This document shows positions 12,444 through 30,680 of a stretch of DNA of 46,362 bases, one piece after another. The notes beneath the pieces are model-generated. The model ran no database searches. It saw only the letters and a program-made list of their open reading frames with translations, and had not been told where the DNA came from. The stretch's first letter is position 1, and the number at the start of each line of letters is the position of its first letter. This DNA is from an uncultured Opitutaceae bacterium (GTDB lineage: Bacteria; Verrucomicrobiota; Verrucomicrobiia; Opitutales; Opitutaceae). A program made the translations under genes and the position numbers. Location of the stretch: contig CALFNN010000017.1 of the NCBI GenBank assembly GCA_937902925.1, positions 1-46,362 of the forward strand. The letters are read 5' to 3'.

Positions 12444-13964
12444 ATGTCCCTCTTCATTGGCATCGATTCCGGCACACAGAGCGTCAAGGCGGTCGTCCTC
12501 GACCTCGACACCCGCAAGGTCATCGCCGAGGCGCGCGCCCCGCACCGGCTGATCGATGGGCTGCCCGTCGGGCACATGGAGCAGCATCCCCAGGAATGGG
12601 CGGTGGCGATGGACGCGGCGATCGCGGAGGTTGCGGGCAGGGTCGACCGGGCACACGTCCGCGGCATCGGCGTCTCCGGCCAGCAGCACGGCTTCGTGCC
12701 GCTGGATGCGAAGGGCAACGTGATTCGTCCGGCGAAACTCTGGTGCGATACGAGCACGACAGCCGAGTGCGCGATCATTACGAAAAAACTCGGCGGCCCG
12801 AAGGCGGCTATCCGCCTGACCGGCAATCTCATCCTGCCGGGGTTTACTGCACCGAAAATCCTCTGGCTGAAACGACACGAGCCGGCGAACTACAAGAGGC
12901 TCCGTCACGTGCTGCTCCCCCACGATTACCTGAATTTTCACCTGACGGGAAATTGCTTCATGGAGTTCGGCGACGCATCCGGCACGGCGCTCATGGATGT
13001 GCGCCGGCAGGTGTGGTCGGCGGCCGCGATCAACGCCGTCGACCGGCACCTGGCCGATTGGCTACCCTCGCTGTCGCCATCGCACGAGGCCGCGGGGACG
13101 CTTCGGCCGGAACTGGCGGCAAAGTTCGGATTGCCGGATGGTGTCATCGTGAGCGCGGGTGGCGGCGACAACATGATGGGCGCGATCGGCACGGGCAATG
13201 TCTCGCCTGGAATTGTCACCGCGAGCTTCGGCACGAGCGGGACGATCTACGCCCATGCGAAACAGCCCGTCGTCGATCCGCTCGGCGAGATCGCGGCCTT
13301 CTGCTCGTCGACCGGAGGATGGTTGCCGTTGCTCTGCACGATGAACGTCACGACCGTGACCGAGCAGGCGCGGGCGCTCTTCGGTTACGATCACGCGGCG
13401 CTCGATGCGGCAGTGGCGGCCACGCCGCCGGGCGCGGGCGGACTCGTCCTGCTGCCGTATCTCGCCGGCGAACGGACGCCGAATGTGCCGGATGGGTCAG
13501 GAGTGTTGTTGGGGTTGAATCAAAAGAGTTTCAACCCGGGTCATATCGCACGCGCGGCGATGGAGGGCGTCACGATGGGGATGAACTACGGGCTCCGGCG
13601 CCTCGCGACGTTGGGGGTGAAAGCCCGGGAAATTCGCGTGACCGGCGGCGGGGCGAAGTCGCCCGTCTGGCGGCAACTCATGGCGGATATTTTCGGCGTG
13701 CCGGTGGTGGCGATGGTCGAGGATGAAGGCGCGGCACTCGGCGGCGCGCTGCAGGCGGCGTGGTGCGCGGCGTTGCGGGAAGGCCGGAAGGCGAAGCTCA
13801 CCGATTTCACGACGGGCGCGGTGGCGCTGAACGAGGCGACGCGTTGCCGGCCAGACAAAGCGAACATCGCTCGTTATCGCGAGTTGCAGGCACTGCAGGA
13901 CAAGCTGAGCCTGGGCTTGCGCGAGCTGTTTCCCCTGCAACGTGGTCTGGCGGACATTGACTGA
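12444..13964 (+). CDS. xylB: Xylulokinase (FGGY family)
   Basis: This 506-residue cytoplasmic kinase phosphorylates D-xylulose to xylulose 5-phosphate for the pentose phosphate pathway. FGGY hallmarks are GIDSGTQSVKAVVLDLD (N-terminal phosphate loop), GVSGQQHGFVPLD (sugar pocket), VSAGGGDNMMGAIGTG with the likely catalytic Asp, and the C-terminal ATP-binding blocks TGGGAKSPVWRQLMADIF and DEGAALGGALQAAWC. Length matches the family. The QQHG motif favours xylulokinase over glycerol or gluconate kinase. It lies 128 bp after the MFS gene and 61 bp before the GH28 gene on the same strand, so the three may form one sugar-utilisation unit. Confidence 0.9.
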   Translation: MSLFIGIDSGTQSVKAVVLDLDTRKVIAEARAPHRLIDGLPVGHMEQHPQEWAVAMDAAIAEVAGRVDRAHVRGIGVSGQQHGFVPLDAKGNVIRPAKLWCDTSTTAECAIITKKLGGPKAAIRLTGNLILPGFTAPKILWLKRHEPANYKRLRHVLLPHDYLNFHLTGNCFMEFGDASGTALMDVRRQVWSAAAINAVDRHLADWLPSLSPSHEAAGTLRPELAAKFGLPDGVIVSAGGGDNMMGAIGTGNVSPGIVTASFGTSGTIYAHAKQPVVDPLGEIAAFCSSTGGWLPLLCTMNVTTVTEQARALFGYDHAALDAAVAATPPGAGGLVLLPYLAGERTPNVPDGSGVLLGLNQKSFNPGHIARAAMEGVTMGMNYGLRRLATLGVKAREIRVTGGGAKSPVWRQLMADIFGVPVVAMVEDEGAALGGALQAAWCAALREGRKAKLTDFTTGAVALNEATRCRPDKANIARYRELQALQDKLSLGLRELFPLQRGLADID

Positions 13965-14025
13965 GCACCATTTCTCGCGGTCGTTCGTCTTCCCACCACG
14001 CCGTCTTTTGCCAACGATCAACCCC

Positions 14026-15579
14026 ATGAACTCTCTTCAACTTCGCCTGCGGTGCGGGGCCACATGCCTCGCCTTTGTTTTTGCCTCGTTCGCCTCGGCG
14101 CAATCCGCCGATGACTGGATGTCCGGCTTCGTGATGCCGGTCGTCAAGGAGCCGGCGATCCCGGCCCACGTCGCGAGGATCACCGACTTCGGGGCCGTGT
14201 CGGGGGGCCGGGTGCTTTGCACGGAAGCGATCGCCAAGGCGATCGACAGTGTCGCCGCGCAGGGTGGCGGCCGGGTGGTCATTCCGCCGGGCATCTGGCT
14301 GGCGGGACCGATCGTGCTCAAGAGCAACGTCGAGTTGCGCGCCGAGGAGGGCGCGCTGGTGCAATTCTCCACCGACACCAAGCTGTTCAACGGCCCGGCG
14401 CTGATCTCCGGCGAAAACTTGGAAAACATCGCGATCACCGGTCACGGCATCTTTGACGGGGCGGGCGACGCGTGGCGGCCGGTGAAGCACTACAAGATGA
14501 CGGAAGTCCAATGGAAGGCGCTCGTCGCCTCGGGCGGTCGCGTCGATGCGCAACAGGACATGTGGTATCCCTCGGAAGGCGGATTCCGCCGGCCGCGGAT
14601 GCTGAACCTGCGTTCCTGCCGCCGCGTGCTGCTGGAAGACGCGACGTTCCAGAATTCGCCCTCGTGGAACATCAATCCCGCATTCTGCGACGACGTCACG
14701 ATCCGCAATCTCAACATCCGGAACCCGTGGTATTCCCAGAACGGCGATGGCCTCGACCTCGAGTCGTGCCGCAATGTCATCATCCGCGGCACCCGGCTCG
14801 ACGTCGGCGACGACGCGCTCTGCATGAAATCCGGCGCGGGCGCCGAGGCGCGCAAGAGCGGCCGGCCGACGGAAAACGTGTTGATCGAGGACTGCACGGT
14901 TTATCACGGCCACGGCGGATTCACGATCGGCAGCGAGATGTCGGGTGGCGTCCGGAACATCCGCGTGAACAACTGCGTGTTCATCGGCACGGATATCGGG
15001 CTGCGGTTCAAGACGCAGCGCGGCCGCGGCGGCGTGGTGGAAAAAATCTACCTGAGCAACATCCAGATGACGAACATCCCGACCGACGCGATCAGCTTCA
15101 ACATGTATTACGGCGGCGCTGGTCCGACCGAGGAAGCCGACAACGGATTGGTCGAGTCGAAACCGGCCGCCGTGAGTGAAGGCACGCCGCAGTTCCGGGA
15201 TATCTACATCGAGAACGTGACCTGCCTCGGCGCGCGGCGTGCGGTGCAATTGCAGGGGCTGCCCGAGATGCCGATCGCGGGGATTCACCTCCGCAATGTC
15301 TCGATCACCGCCGACCAAGGGCTGGTCTGTCAGGACGCGAAAAACATCACGCTGAGCGGCGTTGAGATCGTCAACAGCAAGGGCCCGGTCGCAAGCTTCG
15401 TTGGCAGCAGGGACATCACGGTCGACAAGCTGACTTACCACGCTGGTGCCGATACGCTCTTCAAGGTGTTTGGCAAAAATAACGCCGGCATCGCGGTTCG
15501 CGACACCGATGCGAAAGGTGCGAAGCAAGCGGTCGAGCTGACGAACGGCGCCGAGGCCGGCGCGATCAAGATTGAATGA
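14026..15579 (+). CDS. Secreted GH28 polygalacturonase-family glycosidase
   Basis: This 517-residue precursor has a signal peptide (RCGATCLAFVFASFASAQ). The mature protein is a right-handed beta-helix with all GH28 hallmarks in order: QNGDGLDLESC (first Asp), VGDDALCMKSG (the Asp pair), GHGGFTIGSEMSGG (the His-Gly motif), and GLRFKTQRGRGG, a variant of the usual RxK motif. It should hydrolyse alpha-1,4-galacturonosyl bonds of pectin or a related rhamnogalacturonan link. The variant last motif and the extra length over endo-polygalacturonases suggest an exo-acting or bacterial-clade enzyme. ATG 14026 follows CCCC and opens the signal peptide. It converges with the large pectinase gene across two hairpins. 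Confidence 0.9.
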   Translation: MNSLQLRLRCGATCLAFVFASFASAQSADDWMSGFVMPVVKEPAIPAHVARITDFGAVSGGRVLCTEAIAKAIDSVAAQGGGRVVIPPGIWLAGPIVLKSNVELRAEEGALVQFSTDTKLFNGPALISGENLENIAITGHGIFDGAGDAWRPVKHYKMTEVQWKALVASGGRVDAQQDMWYPSEGGFRRPRMLNLRSCRRVLLEDATFQNSPSWNINPAFCDDVTIRNLNIRNPWYSQNGDGLDLESCRNVIIRGTRLDVGDDALCMKSGAGAEARKSGRPTENVLIEDCTVYHGHGGFTIGSEMSGGVRNIRVNNCVFIGTDIGLRFKTQRGRGGVVEKIYLSNIQMTNIPTDAISFNMYYGGAGPTEEADNGLVESKPAAVSEGTPQFRDIYIENVTCLGARRAVQLQGLPEMPIAGIHLRNVSITADQGLVCQDAKNITLSGVEIVNSKGPVASFVGSRDITVDKLTYHAGADTLFKVFGKNNAGIAVRDTDAKGAKQAVELTNGAEAGAIKIE

Positions 15580-15673: not shown

Positions 15674-18600
15674 CTATTTGCCGGCGGCCGACACGGTCAG
15701 GGTTGCCGGCGAGCTGGTCGCGGAGACCGCGAGACTGGCGGGTTTCAGCGCGCTGGCGGCGACGTCAAATCCATCGAGGGAATTGGAGACCACGGCGGCA
15801 TACTTGCCGGCTTGGGCAGCCTGGACGTTCGTCAACGTCAGCGTCGCGCCGGTCGCGCCGGAAACATCGGCGCCATCGGCGAGCTTGCCGTCCGCCAGCG
15901 GCTTGCCGTTGAACGTCCATTGAATCTTCGCGGCAGCCCTGCTGGCTCCGCTCGTGCCGGCGACGCCCACGGTAAACGTCGCGCCGGCGCCGGGGGCGAC
16001 GGACTGGTTTTTCGGCTGCGACACGATGGCGAGCGCGTTGGCCGTGATGATTTTTCCCACGTCGGTATCACCGGTGAACTGGACATTGGACGCGTTGTAG
16101 ATCTCGAAGCCCGGGCCGTCGCTCATGCGAACGTTGTTCAGCTTGATGTTGTCGATGAGGTAGCCGTCCAACGCGAGGCCCCAGATGATGTTGTAGCCCT
16201 TCGTGCCGGTGGCGGTGACGTTGTTGATCGTGACGTTTTTCCAGGCGGGCAGCGTCTTTCGCGCGAGGGAATTCGGCGGCTTGGCGTTCCATGCGTTCAC
16301 CTTTTCCGGCGTGATCAGGTTGTTGCCGGAAATGGAGCCGGGGTTTCCCACGGGGTGATAGTAGCTGTAGAATACGATCGGGTATTCGACGTTGCGCATC
16401 GTGAGATTCGTGCAGGTGATGTTTTTCACGTCGCCGCCCTCGGTGGCGTCGGCCTTGAGTCGGAGGCCCGAGGTCGTGCCGACGAAGGTGCAGTTCTTGA
16501 TAACCATGCCGTCGAGCCCGCGGTTGCTCTGACCGCCGACGGACATGCCGTGGCCCTCGGCGAAGAAGCAGTCGGAGACCGTGATGTCGCTGCAATAGGT
16601 GCCGCCCGGCTTCATGACGATATTGTCGTCGCCGGTCGCGATGGAGCAGTTCTGGAAGAGCTGGTGCGACCCGGAGGGATCGACGCCGTCGGTGTTGGGA
16701 CCTTCGGGCGTGTCGATGACGAGGTTGAAGACGGTGAGGTTGTTGGTCGAACCGAGCGCGGCGTGAAACATCGGCGAGCGCGTAAGGGTGACGCCTCCGA
16801 GGTAAACGCGATCGCAATTGCCGGTGCGGATGAGGAACGGGCGGTGCGGCAGGTTGCGGTTGGTGCGGAACGCACGCCACCACGCCTCGCCGTCGCCATT
16901 GATGGTGCCGGCGCCGGTGATCGCGACATCATGCACGCCGGTGGCGCTGATGAAGTCCGCGTAGCGTTCGCCCGTGGCGGGATACGCGGGGATTTTTCCG
17001 TCGGTGGCGAATGGCAGGGCGCGAAGCGTCGCCCCGTGGTCGACCTGGAGGTTGATGTTGTTGCCCAGCCGGATGGGACCGCTGAGGTAGGGCTGCGCCG
17101 CGGCGGGAATGGTGACGATGCCGCCGCCGCCTGCGACCGCGACGTCGATGGCGCGCTGGATGGCGGCGGTGTTGTCGGTGGCGCCGTCGCCGACGGCTCC
17201 GTAGGCGGTCACGTCGTAGGCGGCCTCGGGAAACTTCGGGAGCGGGGGCGGCGTGTTGGTCTGCGGGGCGACGGGCATCAATTCGGCGGCGTCACTCGTG
17301 ACGGAGCCGGCGGTGTTGGTCACGGTTACCGTGTAATTGGCCGCGTCGTCCCAGTTCAGGTTTTCGAAGCGGAGAACCGGTTGGGTGTCGCCGGGAATCG
17401 GCTGGCCGTTTTTGCGCCATTGATAGCTTAAGCGGCCGGCGCTGCCGGTTGCGACCACGGTGAAGTAGGGATTGGTGCCGAGCAGACCGAGCTGACTCAC
17501 GGGTGGCACGACGATCGAGGGTGCGCCGGCGGCGGCGGCGGCGGCAGCCGCGACGGGTGTCGCCGTGAAGATCGCGGCGGATTTCGGATTCCAGTCGTGG
17601 CCCAACACGAAGGCGGGATTGCTGTAGTTCGCGATCGTGGCGGCATCGTCGGGCTGCTTCAATTGGCGCGAACCGGGGAGGCGATACGTCACGTCGGTCG
17701 GTTGGCCGTCGGCGGAGTGGCTGTTGAATTCCCAAAAATGAACGTTCGCCGTCCCGGCGGCGCCGCCCTGGAACTGCCAAGCCGTGGTGCCGACGGCGGG
17801 TCCGAGCACACAGTCGAGAATGACGACCTCGCTTGCGGGATAGCGCGACGCGGCGATGCGCGAGAAATAGTTGCCCATCACGCCCTGAAGTCCGTCGAAC
17901 GTGCAGTGCAGGTAAACGAAGCCATGGTTGGTGGGCTGATTGCGAATCTGCGTGTAGAACGCCCCCGAACGCACCGAGCGGGCAATGCAGTTCTCGAAGA
18001 AGACCGGGCCGGTGCCCCACATGAAATCGACGTCGCCCTCGATGAAGCAGTTGTTGAGATAGGCCTGGCCGTTGATCTGGAGCGTGTCCTGAAAGCTGTA
18101 AAGATCGACGTCCTTGAGAATCGCATGCGCCGTGGTCGTGCCATTGAGAATGATCGCCTCGGCCTGCGCGCCGCCCTGCGGCGTGGTGTTGCGCAGCGTG
18201 AGGTTCGCGATGGTGAGGTCGTTGACGCGATGGCCGAGGAAGAGCGCGCGGCGGTAGATGGGGCCGACCTTCGGGTCGACCGAGCCCGGGTCGGGCTGCG
18301 CGCCGCCGAAGGGATTCCCGCCAAAATCCGTGTTGAAGCGGGCATTGTTGGCGTAGGCGATGACGGTCTGCTTGCGGTCCTCGCCGAGTAACGTGATCGC
18401 GTTCTTGTTCGTGACAAAAACCATCTCCTGATAGGTGCCGGTGCGGATGAAGACCGTCGTCGGAGTCGTGTTGCCATCGGGAATGAAATCGAGCGCGCCC
18501 TGCACCGTGCAGAAATCTCCCTTGCCGTCGGCTGCGACGGTAAGGCGCGTGGAGCCGGCGGCGGGCGCGGCCGGCTTGGTGGTGAAACGCCACGCGGCCG

Positions 18601-19828
18601 GCTGGTCGAGTGCGGCAAACGCGTCGCTGCCATCCTTGAAGACGCCGGCGTCGACGGTCACGTAATAGGTCTTGTTGTAAGCGAGGGCGCCGTGCCGCGG
18701 GAAGATCGTGGCCTGGCTGCCGGCGACGATCACGGGATAGTATTTGTAGCCGACGAGACCGCCGATCGCCTGCGTCGCGGTCGGGGAACTGACGTCGATC
18801 GTCTCGACGAGGGAATTATCGGCAGCGTCGACGATGCGAATCTTGCCCGCGGAGCCCAACGTCGGCGGAGCGGCGAACGTGAGGCGCAACGGAGTGTCGG
18901 GCGGGACGTTGGTGGCATTTGCCGCGGGGAAGGCCGCGTTCAGCGGCAGTGAAAGCTTCACCGCGGCGGCGGCCTGGGCGACACCGCCCATCGCATCCGC
19001 GGCCATCGCCAGGCCGGTGTCCTTCAGGTAGCCGGCGAGACTGGCATCGTTGAGCTGAAGGAGCCCATGCACGACGCTCGCGGCGTTGACGAGCGCGCCG
19101 GCGGGATTCGTGTGCGTGTTGTCCTGCGGAAAATAGAGGGCCTTGATCCGTGGCCGGCCGATGCCGTCGTAAAGGTCGGCGATGATGCCATTGACATCGA
19201 CGAACGGGACGCCGCGGGCCTTGGCGACCTCGGCCGCCCACGGGCCGTGATTCTCCTCGCCGCGGACGATTTTGCCGCCAGCCCATTTGCTGCGCGGCAC
19301 GGGCAAGAGGACGATCACCTTCGCGCCGGCGGCGACGCCCTCGTCGATCATCTTCCCCATGTAGTAGCCGAAGGTGTGGATCTGCATCTTTTCGCCGGTG
19401 CGGGGGTTGGTGGCTTCCTCGACCTCGTCGCCCAGGCCCGGCAGATCGTAGCGGTCGATGCTGATCGCACTCTTCGTGTCGTTGTGCCCGAACTGGAGGA
19501 GGACGACATCACCGGGACGCAACTGGCTGCGCACGGCTTCCCACCGGCCCTCGCCGATGAACGTGCGTGCGCTGCGTCCGCCGAGGGCACGGTTCTCGAC
19601 CTTGATCTTGGCGGGATCGAAAAACTCGGCGACGCGCTCGCCCCAGCCGAGGATGGGCGGCCGTGAGGGAGCGGCGGTCGAATCGCCGCAGACAAAAAGA
19701 ATCGGCAGTCGTTTTTCCGCGGCGCCTTGGGCGGACGCGGCGGCACCGAATGACGACTGAACGCCGGCGAAAGCGAGGAATGCGAGGACGGGAGCGAGTT
19801 TCAGGAAGGAGAACCGGGGATTTTTCAT
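15674..19828 (-). CDS. Three-enzyme secreted pectinase: CE12 acetylesterase, CE8 pectin methylesterase, GH28 polygalacturonase
   Basis: This 1384-residue precursor starts at ATG 19828 with a signal peptide ending near residue 30. Domain 1 (about 40-275) is an SGNH/CE12 rhamnogalacturonan acetylesterase: Ser50 in CGDSTAA, the GGRSARTF block, Asn116 in GHNDTKS, and Asp236 with His239 in DNTHTNPAG. An Ig-like spacer (about 292-417) follows. Domain 2 (about 425-752) is a CE8 pectin methylesterase: Gln556, Gln580 and Asp581 in YSFQDTL, Asp601 in GDVDFMWG, and probably Arg657. A poly-Ala linker and an Ig-like domain (about 770-853) lead to domain 3 (about 865-1240), a GH28 polygalacturonase: PNTDGVD (1044-1050), GDD (1066-1068), GHG (1092-1094) and RLK (1123-1125). 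A final Ig-like domain closes the chain. No catalytic residue appears lost, so it should deacetylate, demethylate and cut pectin. Confidence 0.93.
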   Translation of the reverse strand: MKNPRFSFLKLAPVLAFLAFAGVQSSFGAAASAQGAAEKRLPILFVCGDSTAAPSRPPILGWGERVAEFFDPAKIKVENRALGGRSARTFIGEGRWEAVRSQLRPGDVVLLQFGHNDTKSAISIDRYDLPGLGDEVEEATNPRTGEKMQIHTFGYYMGKMIDEGVAAGAKVIVLLPVPRSKWAGGKIVRGEENHGPWAAEVAKARGVPFVDVNGIIADLYDGIGRPRIKALYFPQDNTHTNPAGALVNAASVVHGLLQLNDASLAGYLKDTGLAMAADAMGGVAQAAAAVKLSLPLNAAFPAANATNVPPDTPLRLTFAAPPTLGSAGKIRIVDAADNSLVETIDVSSPTATQAIGGLVGYKYYPVIVAGSQATIFPRHGALAYNKTYYVTVDAGVFKDGSDAFAALDQPAAWRFTTKPAAPAAGSTRLTVAADGKGDFCTVQGALDFIPDGNTTPTTVFIRTGTYQEMVFVTNKNAITLLGEDRKQTVIAYANNARFNTDFGGNPFGGAQPDPGSVDPKVGPIYRRALFLGHRVNDLTIANLTLRNTTPQGGAQAEAIILNGTTTAHAILKDVDLYSFQDTLQINGQAYLNNCFIEGDVDFMWGTGPVFFENCIARSVRSGAFYTQIRNQPTNHGFVYLHCTFDGLQGVMGNYFSRIAASRYPASEVVILDCVLGPAVGTTAWQFQGGAAGTANVHFWEFNSHSADGQPTDVTYRLPGSRQLKQPDDAATIANYSNPAFVLGHDWNPKSAAIFTATPVAAAAAAAAGAPSIVVPPVSQLGLLGTNPYFTVVATGSAGRLSYQWRKNGQPIPGDTQPVLRFENLNWDDAANYTVTVTNTAGSVTSDAAELMPVAPQTNTPPPLPKFPEAAYDVTAYGAVGDGATDNTAAIQRAIDVAVAGGGGIVTIPAAAQPYLSGPIRLGNNINLQVDHGATLRALPFATDGKIPAYPATGERYADFISATGVHDVAITGAGTINGDGEAWWRAFRTNRNLPHRPFLIRTGNCDRVYLGGVTLTRSPMFHAALGSTNNLTVFNLVIDTPEGPNTDGVDPSGSHQLFQNCSIATGDDNIVMKPGGTYCSDITVSDCFFAEGHGMSVGGQSNRGLDGMVIKNCTFVGTTSGLRLKADATEGGDVKNITCTNLTMRNVEYPIVFYSYYHPVGNPGSISGNNLITPEKVNAWNAKPPNSLARKTLPAWKNVTINNVTATGTKGYNIIWGLALDGYLIDNIKLNNVRMSDGPGFEIYNASNVQFTGDTDVGKIITANALAIVSQPKNQSVAPGAGATFTVGVAGTSGASRAAAKIQWTFNGKPLADGKLADGADVSGATGATLTLTNVQAAQAGKYAAVVSNSLDGFDVAASALKPASLAVSATSSPATLTVSAAGK

Positions 19829-20036: not shown

Positions 20037-20900
20037 TCAATTCGCCGCGACTGTTTCCTTCGGCGTGGCTTCGGTCATGATCCGGAAAACGTAGTAGGTT
20101 GCCGGGGTGGTGCCGACGTTCTTCATGCCGTGGAGATCGTTGGATGCGAAAAAGAAAATCGAGCCGGGCCCCGCGCGCTGCGAGACGCCATTGATCGTGG
20201 CTTCCATCAATCCCTCCTGAATGGCGATGAATTCCTCGTCCGGATGCCGGTGGGCGGCGTGAGGCGACTGGCCGGGGTTGAGCGTGGTGACATGGCAGTC
20301 GAACTTGACCATCGTCGTCGTGGGCGAGGAGACGACCTCGCGGCGCGCACCCTGCGCGGTTGGCTTGGCGACGAGCTTTTCCCAGTCCCAGACGCTGGAA
20401 GGGAGCTTGCCCGGCGCGGCGACTTCCGCCGCGGGCTTGTTCGGGACGGACGCGGTGGCGGCGGTGGTGAAGTTGAACACGAAGTAGGTCGCCGGCGTAT
20501 CGCCGACGTTCTTCATGTTATGGACGTCGTGGGAGGCGAACAGCCACGAAGAGCCCGCGCCGACCCGTTGCTTGTGGCCATTGATATTCACCTCGAGCGT
20601 GCCCTCCTTCAGGACGATGACTTCCTCCTGCGGATGGTGATGGGGCGCGTGGGACTCGAAGCCGGGCTTCAGGGTGGTGAGGTGCGACTCGAACCGCACG
20701 AGCGTGGGGGTCGGGAGATTGGTGACGGCGCGTTGTTCGCCGGAAGCCTTGGTGACGACCTTGAGGTCCTCCCATTTGAAAACGGCGGAACCCTGACGGG
20801 CTGGCGCGGCGGAAGTGGGCGGCTGGGCGTGCAGGAACACGGGTGACACCGGAACAACGACGACGGCGAGAACGGGCAGAAAACGGAGGCTCAGGTTCAT
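20037..20900 (-). CDS. Secreted bicupin
   Basis: This 287-residue precursor has a signal peptide (MNLSLRFLPVLAVVVVPVSP, then VFLHAQ). Two tandem cupin barrels follow. The first has SHAPHHHPQEEVIVLKEG and SHDVHNMKNVG. The second has PHAAHRHPDEEFIAIQEG and SNDLHGMKNVG. Both keep the His, His, Glu and His ligands, so both should bind metal. The second half is closest to the single cupin at 8775-9269, so duplication and fusion of a single-domain ancestor is likely. It lies between a DUF1080 hydrolase and the large pectinase on one strand. A role with sugars or lignin-derived ligands is possible but not shown. TTTCCC precedes the ATG. Confidence 0.85.
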   Translation of the reverse strand: MNLSLRFLPVLAVVVVPVSPVFLHAQPPTSAAPARQGSAVFKWEDLKVVTKASGEQRAVTNLPTPTLVRFESHLTTLKPGFESHAPHHHPQEEVIVLKEGTLEVNINGHKQRVGAGSSWLFASHDVHNMKNVGDTPATYFVFNFTTAATASVPNKPAAEVAAPGKLPSSVWDWEKLVAKPTAQGARREVVSSPTTTMVKFDCHVTTLNPGQSPHAAHRHPDEEFIAIQEGLMEATINGVSQRAGPGSIFFFASNDLHGMKNVGTTPATYYVFRIMTEATPKETVAAN

Positions 20901-25028: not shown

Positions 25029-28000
25029 ATGAAGCGAACACGAAAGTTTCTGGTCATTGTTGCAACCCTGGCGGCGTGGACGATGCCCGCAGGGCAGCTC
25101 CAGGCGCAGCCGCCGTCGGACCCGTTGAAGGCGGGCTTCGAGACGCCGCCCGACTCGGCCAAGCCGCGGACGTGGTGGCACTGGACGATGAGCAACGTCA
25201 CCAAGGAGGGCATCACGAAGGATCTCGAGTGGATGAAACGCGAAGGGATCGGTGGCTTCATGCTCGCCGATGTGAGCGCGTCGGGACCGTCCCGGCAGGT
25301 CGTCGACAACCCGAAGCCCTACGGCACACCGGAATGGTATGATGCGGTGCATCACGCGGCGGCCGAGGCGGACCGACTTGGGTTGGAGATGTCGATCTTC
25401 AGTTCCCCGGGCTGGAGCGAGACCGGCGGCCCGTGGGTGACGCCCGCGGAGGCGATGAAGAAATACGTCTGGAGCGAAACGCCGGTCGCGGGTGGGAGTC
25501 ATTTTTCCGGCAAACTCATCGCACCGCCGAACAATATCGGCCAGATCCGCAACACGGGCGCGGGTTACTACACGAGCGACTCGAAGGAGCCGCCGTTCTA
25601 CGCCGACAGCGCGGTCGTGGCGTATCGGGTGCCCGCGGCCGAGGGCGATGCGGGCGCGGCCAAGCCTATCGTCACGACCAACAACGGTCCGGTCGACGGC
25701 ACGCCGCTCCTCGACGACCAGCTCGGCACGCTGATGACCGTGGCGGCGCCGAAGGACGGCGGGGCGGCGTGGATTCAGTTCGAATTTCCGCAACCGTTCT
25801 TCGCCCGGGCCATCACCCTCGGCGGCAGGGGCGGCAGCGCTGCGGGCATTCCGGTCGGCCGCGTGCTCGCGAGCGACGACGGGAAGGAATTTCGCACCCT
25901 GGTCACGCTGCCGGGCGAACAGCTATACCGGCAGAGCATGGTGCGGACGTATGACTTTGAGCCGACCACGGCGAAATACTACCGCATCGAGATGAGCGGC
26001 GCGCCGATCGGGCCCGCGCCGACCATGAGCCAGGCGCCCAACGTGCCGGCGGCGCAATACGTCCTCAGCGAGGCAGTCCTGCACAGCGGCGCGCGAGTGG
26101 AACGCTGGGAGGAAAAGGCGGGGTTCAGTTTCCTGTTCGAATACGACACGGTGCCGACACCGGCCGTGCCCGCGTCCGCGACCGTGCCCGCCAAGGACGT
26201 GATCGACCTCACCGCGCAGATGAAGCGCGACGGTTCGCTCGAGTGGGATGCGCCCCCGGGCAACTGGGTGGTGCTCCGCCTCGGCTATTCGCTCACGGGT
26301 GCGAAGAACCGGCCCTCGACCCCGGCGGGCTCCGGCTACGAGGCGGACAAGCTCAGCCGCGCCCACATGGAGGCCTATTACCACGGCTATTTCGATCCCC
26401 TCCAGAAGGCGCTCGGGCCGTTGTTCGGAAAATCGCTCCGCTACGTGATGATGGACAGTTGGGAGGCCGGCACGAACAACTGGACGGACGAAATCGCCGC
26501 CCAGTTCCAAAAGCGCCGCGGCTACAGCCCGACGCCCTACCTGCCCGTGCTCACCGGCCGGGTGGTCGACAACGCGGACGTGAGCGATCGCTTCCTGTGG
26601 GATTTTCGCCGGACGCTGGCCGATCTCTGGGCCGACGCCCACTACGGCACGATGGCGGACGAGCTACGGAAGCACGGGATCGGCATCTACGCGGAGGCGG
26701 CGGGAGTCTCGCTCGAGATGCCGGAGGACACGCTGCTCAACAAGAGCAAGGTGGAGATTCCGTCCGGCGAATTCTGGGTGCACGACCTGCATCCGCGGCT
26801 GATGTATTTGCAGGACGTGCGGGGGGCGGCGTCGGCTTCCCATGTTTACGGCAAGCCGCTGACCGCGTCGGAATCGTTCACCGGTGGCAGTTACGAATCG
26901 CCCTACACGTTGAAAAAGGTCGCCGACTACTGGCTCGCGCAGGGCATCAACCGGATGATCTTCCACACCTCGGCGCACCAGCCGCTCGATACGAAGCCCG
27001 GCAACACGATGGTCGGCACGCACCTCAACCGGAACATCACCTGGGCCGAGCTGGCGACACCGCTGTTCACGTATTTCGCGCGCGAGTGCTACATGCTCCA
27101 GCAGGGGAAATTCGTCGCGGACGTCGCCTACCTGCTCAACGAGGGCGCGCCCTCGACGCCGCCGATCTGGGCGAGCGGCACGGTGCCGACGCCGGCCGAC
27201 GGCTTCGATTACGACTTCGTCAATGCCGACGTGCTGCTCAACCGCATGAGCGTGAGCGACGACGGCCGTATCGTGCTGCCGGACGGCATGAGCTACCGGA
27301 TGCTCGTGCTGCCGGAGACCGACCGGATGCGACCGGAACTCGTCAAGAAGATCGGCGAACTCGCGCGGGGCGGTGCGATCGTGCTCGGGCCGAAACCGAC
27401 GCGCTCACCGAGCCTGGCCGGATATCCGGCAGCCGACGGCGAGGTGCGGGCGCTGGCGGAGGATATCTGGGGTGATCTCGATGGGGTGAGCCGGACGATC
27501 CGCTATGTCGGCAAAGGACGCGTCGTCTGGGGGTGGTCGCCGGCAGACACGCTCGCCGCCGCGAAGATCGACAAGGATTTCGAATACTCCGGTGACCTTG
27601 ACTTGAAATTGGCGTGGCTTCACCGCCGGTTGCCCGATCGCGATATTTACTATGTGGCAAATCTTACCGATTTTCCTGCCGACGCGCAAATCCGGGTGCG
27701 CACCGCAGGTGATGGCGCCACGTTTTGGCACCCAGACACCGGTGAAATCGAACGGGTCAAATACGCGACGATTGGCGATCGGACGGTCGTCCCACTCCAT
27801 TTCGACGAACGCGAAGCGGGCTTCTTGGTGTTCCGTCGGAACGCAGAAAGCGGTGCTGGCGGTTGGGTGTCGCAACCGTCACAGACAGTCGCCACCATCG
27901 AGGGAACATGGGATGTTCGGTTTCCGCCAAATCTCGGGGCTCCCTCCGAATCTCAATTCGCCCGGCTTTCTTCGTGGACGGCGAGTAGCGAGGCCGGAAT

Positions 28001-28412
28001 TAAATATTTCTCCGGCACGGCGACCTACACGAAGACCGTCGACGCTCCGCAAGCGTGGTTCCGCCCGGGGGCCGCCACGCTGCTTGACCTGGGACGGGTC
28101 GGCGACATCGCCGAGGTCTCGGTCAACGGCCACGCGCTCGGCGAACTTTGGAAGTCGCCCTATCGAATCGACGTCACGTCCGCGCTCAAGCTTGGCGAAA
28201 ACAAGGTCGAGATCAAGGTTACCAACGAGTGGACGAACCGTCTCGCCGGCGACGCCACCGTGCCGGAGGGCCAGAAGATCCTCAACACGGGTCCCTCTGC
28301 CGCCGGTCGCGGTGGTCGTGGGGGCGGCGGCCGGGGCGGATTCGGCGGCGCGCTGCCCGAATCCGGGCTGCTCGGCCCGGTCACGATTCTGTCGCAATCC
28401 CCAGTCCCATGA
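25029..28412 (+). CDS. Secreted GH106 alpha-L-rhamnosidase
   Basis: This 1127-residue precursor has a signal peptide (VIVATLAAWTMPAGQLQAQ). The GH106 start is seen in PRTWWHWTMSNVTKEGITKD and WMKREGIGGFMLADV. The barrel continues with MSIFSSPGWSETGG and, near residue 475, YVMMDSWEAGTNNWTDE, an acidic block expected at the active site. A discoidin-like beta insert (about 235-345) and a C-terminal jelly roll with LLDLGRVGDIAEVSVNGHAL complete the layout. GH106 enzymes remove L-rhamnose from rhamnogalacturonan. The C-terminus carries a Gly/Arg-rich insert (about residues 1092-1110), and about 27590-28020 is less GC-rich. The next gene overlaps by ATGA, so an operon with CE15 and CE12 is likely. 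Confidence 0.93.
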   Translation: MKRTRKFLVIVATLAAWTMPAGQLQAQPPSDPLKAGFETPPDSAKPRTWWHWTMSNVTKEGITKDLEWMKREGIGGFMLADVSASGPSRQVVDNPKPYGTPEWYDAVHHAAAEADRLGLEMSIFSSPGWSETGGPWVTPAEAMKKYVWSETPVAGGSHFSGKLIAPPNNIGQIRNTGAGYYTSDSKEPPFYADSAVVAYRVPAAEGDAGAAKPIVTTNNGPVDGTPLLDDQLGTLMTVAAPKDGGAAWIQFEFPQPFFARAITLGGRGGSAAGIPVGRVLASDDGKEFRTLVTLPGEQLYRQSMVRTYDFEPTTAKYYRIEMSGAPIGPAPTMSQAPNVPAAQYVLSEAVLHSGARVERWEEKAGFSFLFEYDTVPTPAVPASATVPAKDVIDLTAQMKRDGSLEWDAPPGNWVVLRLGYSLTGAKNRPSTPAGSGYEADKLSRAHMEAYYHGYFDPLQKALGPLFGKSLRYVMMDSWEAGTNNWTDEIAAQFQKRRGYSPTPYLPVLTGRVVDNADVSDRFLWDFRRTLADLWADAHYGTMADELRKHGIGIYAEAAGVSLEMPEDTLLNKSKVEIPSGEFWVHDLHPRLMYLQDVRGAASASHVYGKPLTASESFTGGSYESPYTLKKVADYWLAQGINRMIFHTSAHQPLDTKPGNTMVGTHLNRNITWAELATPLFTYFARECYMLQQGKFVADVAYLLNEGAPSTPPIWASGTVPTPADGFDYDFVNADVLLNRMSVSDDGRIVLPDGMSYRMLVLPETDRMRPELVKKIGELARGGAIVLGPKPTRSPSLAGYPAADGEVRALAEDIWGDLDGVSRTIRYVGKGRVVWGWSPADTLAAAKIDKDFEYSGDLDLKLAWLHRRLPDRDIYYVANLTDFPADAQIRVRTAGDGATFWHPDTGEIERVKYATIGDRTVVPLHFDEREAGFLVFRRNAESGAGGWVSQPSQTVATIEGTWDVRFPPNLGAPSESQFARLSSWTASSEAGIKYFSGTATYTKTVDAPQAWFRPGAATLLDLGRVGDIAEVSVNGHALGELWKSPYRIDVTSALKLGENKVEIKVTNEWTNRLAGDATVPEGQKILNTGPSAAGRGGRGGGGRGGFGGALPESGLLGPVTILSQSPVP

Positions 28413-29737
28413 AGGTCCAACCGCTCTACCGTTTCCTTTCCACCGCGATCGCGCTCGGCGCCGGCGTTGTCGCTCGCGCCCAGATCGTCGACTCCGATCC
28501 CGGCTCCGTCGCCAGTATTCCTGTCAACTATACCGAGGCGAAAACGGGCAGCTACACGCTGCCCGATCCGCTGAAGCTGGCCGACGGTGAACCTGTGACC
28601 GACGCGAAGACGTGGTTCGAAAAGCGCCGGCCGGAGATCTTCAAGATGGTCGAGGAAGGCGAATATGGCCGCGTGCCGCCGCGGCCCGAGGCGATGACGT
28701 TCGATGTCTTCGACAAGGGCACGCCCGCGTTCGACGGCAAGGCGCTGCGCAAGCAGGTCACGATCTACCTCACCGCGAGCCGGACGGAGAACTACGTCGA
28801 CCTGTTGCTCTATCTCCCCGCCAACGCGCCCGGCCCCGTGCCCGTGCTCATCGAGTTTGGCTGGATTCCCAACAACCTCGCGGTGCCCGACGATCCCGGC
28901 GTGAAGGTCGGCCGGCGCTGGGATGCCCAGAAGAAAACGCGCGTGCCGGCCACGCCGGTCGCCAACGACCGCGGCATCTTCCGGCTGCGCAACATCGCCG
29001 ATGTCCTCGCGCGCGGCTACGCGGTGGCGACGTTCTGCTACACCGACGTCGATCCCGACGCACTCGAGGCGATGGCGCAGGGGATTCGCGCCGCCTACTT
29101 GAAGCCCGGTCAGACCGATCGCGCGCCCGATGACTGGGGTTCGGTCGCCGCGTGGGGCTGGGGCGCGAGTCGCGTGATCGATTACCTCGAGACCGATCCG
29201 CAGATCGACGCGAAGCGCGTTGCACTCACCGGCGCCTCCCGCCTCGGCAAAACGACTCTCTGGGCCGCCGCACGCGACGAGCGCATTGCGTGCGCGATCG
29301 CGAGCGTGTCGGGCGAGGGTGGCGCGGCCCTCAGCCGTCGCGACTACGGCGAAACAATCGCGCACCTCGTGGCGCCGTCACGCTACCCCTATCAATTCGC
29401 CGCGAACTACGCCAAGTGGGCCGGACGGGCGGACAAAATGCCGTGGGATGCGCACATGATCATCGCCCTCGTCGCCCCGCGGCCGATTCTGCTGCAGACC
29501 GGCAGCACGGACAAGTGGTCCGACCCTTACGGCGAATTTCTCGCCGCGAAGGCGGCGACGCCCGTGTTCGCTCTGCTGGGCAAAAAGGGCATCGAGAAGG
29601 AGCCGTTCCCGGCGGTCGGCAAACCGCTGATGAACACGCTCGGCTATCTGATGCACGACGGCCCGCACGGCGTGCTGCCGGCGGACTGGCCAGTGTTTCT
29701 CGATTTCCTCGACGCCCACCTGAAGCCGGCAAAGTGA
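28409..29737 (+). CDS. Secreted CE15 glucuronoyl esterase-like protein
   Basis: This 442-residue precursor has a signal peptide (ALGAGVVARAQ). The alpha/beta hydrolase carries CE15 blocks: WGSVAAWGWGASRVIDYLE, Ser277 in LTGASRLGKTTLW, Glu303 in SVSGEGGAALSRRDYG, WDAHMIIALVAPRP, and His420 in HDGPHGVLP. Serine, acid and histidine are all in place. CE15 enzymes split the ester between 4-O-methylglucuronic acid in xylan and lignin alcohols; Opitutus terrae homologues have been characterised (established knowledge). Coupling to a rhamnosidase and acetylesterase suggests a pectin-side ester target instead, which is inference. Its ATG overlaps the GH106 stop, and the CE12 gene starts 10 bp after its own stop. 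Confidence 0.88.
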   Translation: MKVQPLYRFLSTAIALGAGVVARAQIVDSDPGSVASIPVNYTEAKTGSYTLPDPLKLADGEPVTDAKTWFEKRRPEIFKMVEEGEYGRVPPRPEAMTFDVFDKGTPAFDGKALRKQVTIYLTASRTENYVDLLLYLPANAPGPVPVLIEFGWIPNNLAVPDDPGVKVGRRWDAQKKTRVPATPVANDRGIFRLRNIADVLARGYAVATFCYTDVDPDALEAMAQGIRAAYLKPGQTDRAPDDWGSVAAWGWGASRVIDYLETDPQIDAKRVALTGASRLGKTTLWAAARDERIACAIASVSGEGGAALSRRDYGETIAHLVAPSRYPYQFAANYAKWAGRADKMPWDAHMIIALVAPRPILLQTGSTDKWSDPYGEFLAAKAATPVFALLGKKGIEKEPFPAVGKPLMNTLGYLMHDGPHGVLPADWPVFLDFLDAHLKPAK

Positions 29738-29747
29738 TTCCTGACCC

Positions 29748-30680
29748 ATGATGCACCTGCAAACGTGTCGTCTGCTCGCCATCGCCTCCGTGGCATTCCT
29801 CGTCGGAACGCTGGTTCGCGCGGAGGAAACGTCCGCACCTCCGCGTCCCGCCGGCCGGGCGGCGCGGCCCGTGGCGCCACAATCCGTCTGCCCGCGCGAT
29901 GCGCTGCCATGGACGGCATCGGACTTCAAATCGCTCAACCCGAACCTACCATCGCTGATCATCGCGGGCGACTCGACGGCCGACAAGGGCCCCGACGCGT
30001 GGCACCGTGGCTGGGCGGCGCTGTTGATCGACTATTTCGACGCGACGAAGATCAACGTCGTCAACCGCGCCCGCGGCGGCCGCTCGTTCCGCTCGTTTGT
30101 GCACGAGGGCTTGTGGGACCAGTTGATCGCCGCCGTGAAGCCGGGCGATGTCGTGATGATCCAGTTCGGTCATAACGACGGCGGCGACATCAAGGCGGCA
30201 AATGGCCGCGCCGATTTGCCGGGCGTGGGCGACGAGACGCAGGATGTGACGCGCGCCGACGGCTCCGTGGAAACCGTGCACACGTTTGGCTGGTATGAGC
30301 GAAAGTTTATCCGGGATGTCCGTGCCAAGGGCGGGGTGGCCGTCGTGATGTCGACGACCGTCTACAATCGCTGGACCGATGGGCATCATGCGAACAAGCC
30401 GGGAAACATTTACGTCTGGGCGAAGCAGATTGCGGATGAGGAGAAGGTGCCGTTCCTCGACCACGGGGCGCTGATCTCGGCCCGCTATGAGCAGCTCGGG
30501 CAGGACGCGGTGAAGCCGTTCTTCGCGGCGGATCCGTTGCACACGACGACGTTTGGCGCCGTGGTGAATGCCGAGTTATTCGTGGCCGGAGTGAAAAGAC
30601 TCGGGTTGACGACGCTCGTGGACGGCCTGAACGCAAAGGGCCGGGCGATTACGGACGAGTCTCCGCCCGCTGCGAAATAA
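29748..30680 (+). CDS. Secreted CE12 rhamnogalacturonan acetylesterase
   Basis: This 310-residue precursor has a signal peptide (LLAIASVAFLVGTLVRAEE). SGNH-hydrolase blocks are the nucleophile serine in IIAGDSTADKG, Gly in RARGGRSFRSF, Asn in IQFGHNDGGD, and the Asp/His pair in AADPLHTTTFGA. It should remove acetyl groups from rhamnogalacturonan. It resembles the first domain of the large pectinase at 15674-19828, so the window has one free-standing and one fused copy of this enzyme type. It is the last gene of the GH106-CE15-CE12 operon, and a REPIN-like element follows its stop at once. ATG 29748 (preceded by CCC) or the adjacent ATG 29751 is the start. Confidence 0.9.
   Translation: MMHLQTCRLLAIASVAFLVGTLVRAEETSAPPRPAGRAARPVAPQSVCPRDALPWTASDFKSLNPNLPSLIIAGDSTADKGPDAWHRGWAALLIDYFDATKINVVNRARGGRSFRSFVHEGLWDQLIAAVKPGDVVMIQFGHNDGGDIKAANGRADLPGVGDETQDVTRADGSVETVHTFGWYERKFIRDVRAKGGVAVVMSTTVYNRWTDGHHANKPGNIYVWAKQIADEEKVPFLDHGALISARYEQLGQDAVKPFFAADPLHTTTFGAVVNAELFVAGVKRLGLTTLVDGLNAKGRAITDESPPAAK

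What the first reader, a model, noticed from the sequence alone, without database searches (positions are those of the whole stretch)
15674..19828. Three pectin-active enzymes (CE12, CE8, GH28) fused in one secreted protein
All three catalytic sets are visible in one 1384-residue chain: SGNH Ser50/Asn116/Asp236/His239, pectin methylesterase Gln580/Asp581/Asp601, and GH28 Asp1047/Asp1067/Asp1068/His1093. Three Ig-like spacers separate them. Demethylation and deacetylation normally must precede polygalacturonase action, so one chain holds the whole order of reactions. Two-domain CE8-GH28 or CE12-CE8 fusions are imaginable; this triple layout is unusual to my knowledge.
Basis: partly seen in the sequence, partly recalled or inferred. 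Interest (0 to 1): 0.75.

Follow-up and report, generated by a model that had tools for sequence, protein, structure and literature searches.

The report
Three pectin enzymes in one protein
A bacterium that seems to belong to the Opitutaceae encodes one apparently secreted protein that joins three different pectin-attacking enzymes; relatives carry the two-enzyme halves, so it looks like an unusual extension of a known kind of plant-wall enzyme rather than a new kind of system.

Summary
One minus-strand frame, 19828..15674, 1384 aa, carries a CE12-type SGNH esterase, Big_5, a CE8 pectin methylesterase, Ig, GH28 and a C-terminal Ig. All eleven named residues are present. A misassembly is very unlikely: relatives carry each half in-line, CE12-Big_5-CE8 (829 aa) and Big_5-CE8-Ig-GH28-Ig (1168 and 1175 aa), catalytic domains 59-69% identical. 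Among 230 fetched loci I found 22 CE12/CE8 frames, 12 CE8/GH28 frames and one with all three, this one. The same trio also lies as neighbouring genes in some Acidobacteriota and, partly fused, in Duganella. So the layout is rare in what I searched, but it is the sum of two existing fusions in a family that shuffles Ig-linked pectinases. That one chain runs the whole reaction order is not shown: among solved structures CE12 is closest to rhamnogalacturonan acetylesterase, the CE8 is of a divergent group without the RxW tryptophan, endo versus exo GH28 action is open, and nothing has been assayed. Bacteroidota and Bacillota chromosomes were covered only by an exact-pattern scan. New variant of a known kind.

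The parts
15674..19828 (-). whole gene, 1384 aa: signal peptide - CE12 - Big_5 - CE8 - Ig - GH28 - Ig
19730..19828 (-). residues 1-33, likely Sec signal peptide (basic start, hydrophobic core, small residues at the likely cleavage region)
   Evidence: read by eye; not tested with a tool
19061..19699 (-). residues 44-256, CE12-type SGNH esterase; Ser50, Asn116, Asp236, His239
18578..18937 (-). residues 298-417, Big_5 Ig-like spacer
17573..18556 (-). residues 425-752, CE8 pectin methylesterase domain; Gln555, Gln580, Asp581, Asp601, Arg657; no RxW tryptophan
17243..17503 (-). residues 776-862, Ig-like spacer
16079..17218 (-). residues 871-1250, GH28 domain; Asp1047, Asp1067, Asp1068, His1093, Arg1123, Lys1125
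15770..16036 (-). residues 1265-1353, C-terminal Ig-like domain
13942..15579 (+). separate GH28 gene, convergent with the fusion gene
20037..20900 (-). cupin gene (two Cupin_2 stretches) directly upstream on the same strand, 208 bp away
29748..30680 (+). separate CE12-like SGNH esterase gene
25029..28412 (+). GH106 alpha-L-rhamnosidase frame, pectin context

Best explanation
It is a secreted three-enzyme pectinase. Outside the cell the CE12 domain removes acetyl groups from galacturonic acid residues, the CE8 domain removes methyl esters, and the GH28 domain hydrolyses the galacturonan backbone where it has been bared; the Ig-like domains act as spacers that let the three sites work on the same stretch of wall. 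It arose by stepwise domain joining in a bacterial family where Big_5-CE8 and Ig-GH28-Ig modules are shuffled. Shown here: the single chain, the domains, the catalytic residues, fold matches of two models, and both half-fusions in relatives. Inferred: secretion, that all three sites are active, the order of reactions, and any gain from tethering.
For: Domains and E-values. Catalytic residues present and conserved among homologues, query included: CE12 Ser50, Asn116, His239 45 of 45 rows, Asp236 38 of 45; CE8 Gln580 125, Asp581 138, Asp601 137, Arg657 133 of 139, Gln555 133 of 139; GH28 Asp1047, Asp1067, Asp1068 62 of 62, His1093 58, Arg1123 57, Lys1125 60 of 62. The pairwise alignment to rhamnogalacturonan acetylesterase pairs the GDS, GHND and DxTH motifs. 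Models of residues 36-770 and 780-1384 have mean pLDDT 79.9 and 78.8; Foldseek matches the first to pectin methylesterases (8tne 8.9e-17) and rhamnogalacturonan acetylesterase (3c1u 2.9e-12), the second to GH28 enzymes (3jur 3.3e-18; 1bhe Z 42.9, rmsd 2.4, 348 aligned). In-line relatives cover both joints: L081 CE12-Big_5-CE8, L080 and L047 Big_5-CE8-Ig-GH28-Ig. The same trio lies as neighbouring genes in L120 and L126 and in L200 and L202, and in four Duganella loci a CE12 frame stands beside a GH28-CE8 frame (L121, L123, L135, L141).
Against: No activity has been measured. Among solved structures CE12 is closest to rhamnogalacturonan acetylesterase. The CE8 group lacks the RxW tryptophan: 0 of 91 rows at 40% or more identity, 39 of 48 other rows. 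Gln555 and Arg657 rest on the multiple alignment; the pairwise alignment to 1gq8 sets the enzyme's residues opposite Glu557 and Ala660 instead. 216 of the 249 frames counted carry only one of the three enzymes. The operon picture does not hold close to home: of 18 loci with a CE8-only frame of this group (L082-L099), 2 have a GH28 frame and 0 a CE12 frame in the stretch held.
Confidence: 0.6

Rival explanations
1. The esterase domain serves rhamnogalacturonan I and the other two serve homogalacturonan, so the chain works at the borders of pectin regions rather than as a linear cascade on one polymer.
For: Best solved relative of the CE12 domain is rhamnogalacturonan acetylesterase; its clade is apart from most CE12 domains fused to RxW-type CE8; the window holds a GH106 alpha-L-rhamnosidase frame.
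Against: Only three distinct solved sequences matched the CE12 domain, so naming by nearest structure is weak; the one NCBIfam match is pectin acetylesterase PaeY, far under its cut-off (40.9 against 1000 bits). In-line fusion with CE8 argues for a shared substrate (inference).
Confidence: 0.3
2. One of the three domains, most likely the divergent CE8, is inactive or has another ester as its substrate, so the protein is in effect a two-enzyme chain.
For: RxW tryptophan missing in the whole group; the Pfam match is split into two stretches.
Against: Both catalytic aspartates, both glutamines and the arginine are conserved in nearly all 139 rows, as expected under selection for catalysis; the model matches solved methylesterases.
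Confidence: 0.15
3. The triple gene is an assembly chimera of separate genes.
For: The genome is in 105 contigs, where chimeras can occur; no second genome with the full triple was found.
Against: Both joints occur in-line in other genomes; reading frame and third-position G+C are continuous; the best other match in the own genome is 55% identical, GH28 part, a poor source of a chimera.
Confidence: 0.03

Closest known systems
CE12-CE8 two-domain esterases, e.g. Bacteroides xylanisolvens (PMC4769552, passage seen; its sequence was not examined) and Bacteroides finegoldii L212
   Same: an acetylesterase-type domain and a CE8 domain in one chain
   Different: no GH28; the B. finegoldii CE8 has RPW where this one has RIA and its CE12 falls in another clade
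CE12-Big_5-CE8 protein of an uncultured Opitutaceae bin (L081, same frame as L059, 829 aa)
   Same: CE12, Big_5 and CE8 align in-line with the window protein, 64%, 58% and 62% of aligned residues identical
   Different: ends after CE8; no Ig-GH28-Ig
Big_5-CE8-Ig-GH28-Ig proteins of the same family (L080 1175 aa, L047 1168 aa)
   Same: everything from Big_5 to the C-terminal Ig aligns in-line
   Different: no CE12 domain
PmeC5 of Butyrivibrio fibrisolvens, CE8 with PL9 (PMC12109409, passages seen)
   Same: large secreted multi-domain pectinase joining a methylesterase to a backbone-cutting enzyme
   Different: lyase in place of hydrolase; no acetylesterase domain mentioned in the passages seen
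L191, 1371 aa, from the phylum of a Phycisphaerae bin
   Same: three catalytic domains in one chain, an esterase-type domain then CE8 then a glycoside hydrolase
   Different: alpha/beta-hydrolase (BD-FAE) in place of CE12 and GH95 in place of GH28; the GH28 is a separate neighbouring frame

Membership tests
CE12 (SGNH) | GDS serine, Asn of GxND, Asp/His of DxxH (motifs recalled) | tested here: met
   Ser50, Asn116, Asp236, His239; conserved in 45, 45, 38 and 45 of 45 rows
CE12 (SGNH) | sequence and fold relation to rhamnogalacturonan acetylesterase | tested here: met
   1deo 3.4e-28; Foldseek 3c1u 2.9e-12, though parts of this domain are under pLDDT 50
CE12 (SGNH) | acetate release from pectin | not testable with these tools
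   needs an assay
CE8 | beta-helix fold of pectin methylesterase | tested here: met
   8tne 8.9e-17, 1xg2 2.9e-15
CE8 | catalytic Asp pair and the Gln beside the first Asp | tested here: met
   Gln580, Asp581, Asp601; aligned to the QD and VDF motifs of 1gq8 and 1qjv; 125, 138 and 137 of 139 rows
CE8 | second active-site Gln and the Arg | tested here: inconclusive
   Gln555 and Arg657 in the multiple alignment, each 133 of 139 rows; pairwise alignment to 1gq8 pairs other residues
CE8 | RxW tryptophan, usual in characterised enzymes (recalled as typical, not obligatory) | tested here: not met
   RIA here; 0 of 91 rows of its group, 39 of 48 of the rest; lowers confidence in specificity more than in the family
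GH28 | NTD, DD, GHG, RxK motifs of polygalacturonases (recalled) | tested here: met
   residues 1045-1047, 1067-1068, 1092-1094, 1123-1125
GH28 | endo- rather than exo-polygalacturonase | tested here: inconclusive
   VIA-align: 1bhe endo Z 42.9, 3jur exo Z 42.1, tied; Foldseek ranks exo 3jur first and 1bhe seventh; phmmer ranks 1bhe first
GH28 | polygalacturonase rather than rhamnogalacturonase | tested here: inconclusive
   favoured by motifs and by Z 42.9 against 35.9 for 1rmg; NCBIfam scores of PglA (108 bits) and rhamnogalacturonidase BT4146 (106 bits) are alike and far under both cut-offs

The most novel reading that the evidence does not exclude
The chain is a tethered machine for doubly esterified (acetylated and methylated) pectin, and its Big_5-linked CE8 belongs to an uncharacterised methylesterase group whose remodelled active site (no RxW tryptophan) accepts acetylated substrate that classic enzymes do not, which is why this group has been joined to CE12 and to GH28.
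Probability: 0.15. Interest if true: 0.5.

Novelty: new variant of a known kind. Interest (0 to 1): 0.33.

Why it matters
If all three sites are active, one polypeptide would deacetylate, demethylate and cut pectin: a test case for whether tethering enzymes in order speeds breakdown, and a candidate single enzyme for sugar-beet type pectin. The half-fusions in relatives are natural controls, and the CE8 group without RxW has no member among the solved structures matched here (one search lists eleven, all at 5e-15 or weaker).

Tried and rejected
Searching for the full triple elsewhere with the whole protein: 57 relatives, 252 same-family genomes, 286 of the class; none besides the own genome. 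In some searches only the best two candidates of each genome were scored and the limit was 1e-60. CE8 family searches (PF01095): 387 genomes of the window's phylum, 6 genomes behind loci, 247 and 246 of the phyla of two other loci, 249 of the phylum of a Duganella locus, 149 of the phylum of a Treponema locus. Sets overlap; 1880 genome searches by the tool's count. One search is a weak test: its limit was 1e-10, and this window's own CE8 scores 1.4e-10 and was itself missed there. CE8 frames of 1000 aa or more listed were fetched and scanned (one of 4439 aa only in part; one search listed none). From, 12 CE8 frames over 1200 aa were not fetched under those handles (G096, G099, G102, G105 two, G112, G121, G123, G134, G136, G154, G266), and some long GH28 or CE12 frames (e.g. 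G010:C119, G033:C19) were not either, so a hidden triple is not excluded. The scan of all genome contigs used six exact peptide patterns and reaches close relatives only: 63 loci, no second triple. Viral contigs: no relative. Plasmids: 199 records with a match, none covering 80% of the query; no near DNA match. Bacteroidota and Bacillota chromosomes had no family search, as no centre in them was at hand.

Single origin of the fused forms: in the CE8 tree holding P0001, L010, L060 and L059 together is disfavoured (p-AU 0.0115), smaller groups are not (0.147, 0.166); other CE8-GH28 frames (L012, L154) lie outside that clade. The GH28 tree groups P0001, L060 and L010 with SH-aLRT 88, not starred. 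I conclude only that the history is not one simple event.

Literature: eight text searches. No listed title or abstract start describes CE12, CE8 and GH28 in one protein; one search found no paper. Full texts were not read; passages were seen of PMC4769552, PMC10807430 and PMC12109409. InterPro and CAZy were not available.
Full report
What is there. The frame 19828..15674 on the minus strand codes for 1384 residues without an internal stop; upstream in-frame TTG codons would lengthen it, up to 1424 residues. Pfam finds, in order, Lipase_GDSL_2 (47-245), Big_5 (298-417), Pectinesterase (two stretches, best 429-495), Ig (about 800-850), Glyco_hydro_28 (954-1162) and Ig (1268-1349). The start reads like a signal peptide by eye. 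The window is a whole contig of a 6.0 Mb genome in 105 contigs. The closest named loci are uncultured Opitutaceae or Opitutae bins, so I place it there by inference.

Are the domains sound? Among homologues gathered here (rows covering at least 80% of my own domain models; shorter ones dropped) the key residues are nearly fixed in 45 CE12, 139 CE8 and 62 GH28 rows, query included (numbers under evidence). AlphaFold2 on residues 36-770 and 780-1384 gave mean pLDDT 79.9 and 78.8. Foldseek places the first with pectin methylesterases and rhamnogalacturonan acetylesterase and the second with GH28 enzymes. For the second, VIA-align gives 1bhe Z 42.9, 3jur Z 42.1 and 5olp Z 41.0; the first two are tied, so endo or exo action is open. 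In the CE12 part Ser50, Asn116 and Asp236 fall in stretches under pLDDT 50, so that active site rests on sequence alone.

The CE8 domain belongs to a distinct group. At the active-site arginine, classic rows read RPW while this group reads R followed by other letters (here RIA): none of 91 rows with at least 40% identity to the query has RxW, 39 of 48 other rows do. Arg657 itself is kept in 133 of 139 rows. Its place is set by the multiple alignment; the pairwise alignment with 1gq8 sets that arginine opposite Ala660.

Is the fusion real? Very probably. L081 aligns in-line over CE12, the linker, Big_5 and CE8; L080 and L047 align in-line over Big_5, CE8, Ig, GH28 and the last Ig. Third-position G+C is even along the gene.

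How rare is it? Over 223 loci, counting each domain sequence once, my models found 14 CE12-CE8, 6 CE8-CE12, 6 CE8-GH28, 6 GH28-CE8 (four of these from Duganella) and 1 CE12-CE8-GH28 frame, the window's own, beside 216 frames with one kind only. Seven later loci added two CE8-CE12 frames from the phylum of a Treponema bin. The models were built from these same families, loci were chosen because they match, and some frames are cut by locus edges, so these are counts of a chosen set, not frequencies. Another three-enzyme chain exists: L191 joins an alpha/beta-hydrolase esterase, CE8 and GH95. Two-enzyme CE12-CE8 is in print (PMC4769552, passage).

How did it arise? In the CE8 tree's 25-row clade that holds the query, 21 rows have none of the other two enzymes, with frames of 474-727 aa. 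The window's CE12 is next to that of L059 (SH-aLRT 91) and with L128 forms a starred group, apart from the CE12 domains of most other CE12/CE8 fusions. Of 17 CE12/CE8 fusion rows in the CE8 alignment besides the query, 16 have RPW and only L059 is of the window's group. So CE12 and CE8 were probably joined more than once, with different CE8 groups. The CE8 tree disfavours one clade of P0001, L010, L060 and L059 (p-AU 0.0115) but does not exclude smaller groups.

Separate neighbouring genes for the trio occur in L120 and L126 (in L126 GH28 and CE12 are 1.4 kb apart) and in L200 and L202 (in L202 the CE12 frame is cut by the locus edge). In four Duganella loci a CE12 frame stands beside a GH28-CE8 frame. 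In all, 6 of the 61 loci listed hold all three kinds. Close to home this is not so: of 18 loci with a CE8-only frame (L082-L099), 2 have a GH28 frame and none a CE12 frame in the stretch held. The neighbours therefore support a functional link in general, not a fused local operon.

Reading. A secreted pectinase with three sites is the best explanation. That the sites act in a fixed order on one polymer is inference. The window also holds a second GH28 gene (13942-15579), a second CE12-like gene (29748-30680), GH106, a glucuronyl-esterase-like frame and a cupin gene, a setting that fits pectin use and does not single out homogalacturonan.

Verdict. Real, the only one of its layout in the sample, assembled from known parts: a new variant of a known kind, moderate interest.

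Noticed in passing
L040:4007-18988 (G021:C46): A single open frame of 4994 aa holds GH28, many Ig and NHL repeats and, near its end, a weak TonB-receptor Plug match (25.3 bits, cut-off 23.9; 22 bits in the whole-frame scan) and a match to the enantio-pyochelin receptor 3qlb (1.3e-8). Whether it is a pectinase fused to an outer-membrane receptor is open.
   Followed up: partly
L151 and L152 (G064:C117): An open frame reported as 8554 aa; its held part carries two CE8 domains and one GH28.
   Followed up: partly
L043:4282-10968, L044:5883-12119, L045:2411-8842: Same-family frames of 2229, 2079 and 2144 aa join CE8 with a pectate lyase (PF00544) and several Ig domains.
   Followed up: no
L191:3976-8088, L192:3749-7888: Frames of 1371 and 1380 aa with CE8 and a GH28 frame next to each; the first joins an alpha/beta-hydrolase esterase, CE8 and GH95; the second was not scanned with Pfam.
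   Followed up: partly
L224:3236-7120, L225:3242-7114: Frames from the phylum of a Treponema bin with CE8 and CE12 and about 500 N-terminal residues without a Pfam match (L224 also checked against solved structures).
   Followed up: partly
CE8 domains at 40% or more identity to window residues 425-770: A whole group of CE8 domains, 91 rows here, lacks the RxW tryptophan; its function is untested as far as seen here.
   Followed up: partly
window 28148-29737: Frame with a glucuronyl-esterase domain (PF22244) between GH106 and a CE12-like gene.
   Followed up: no
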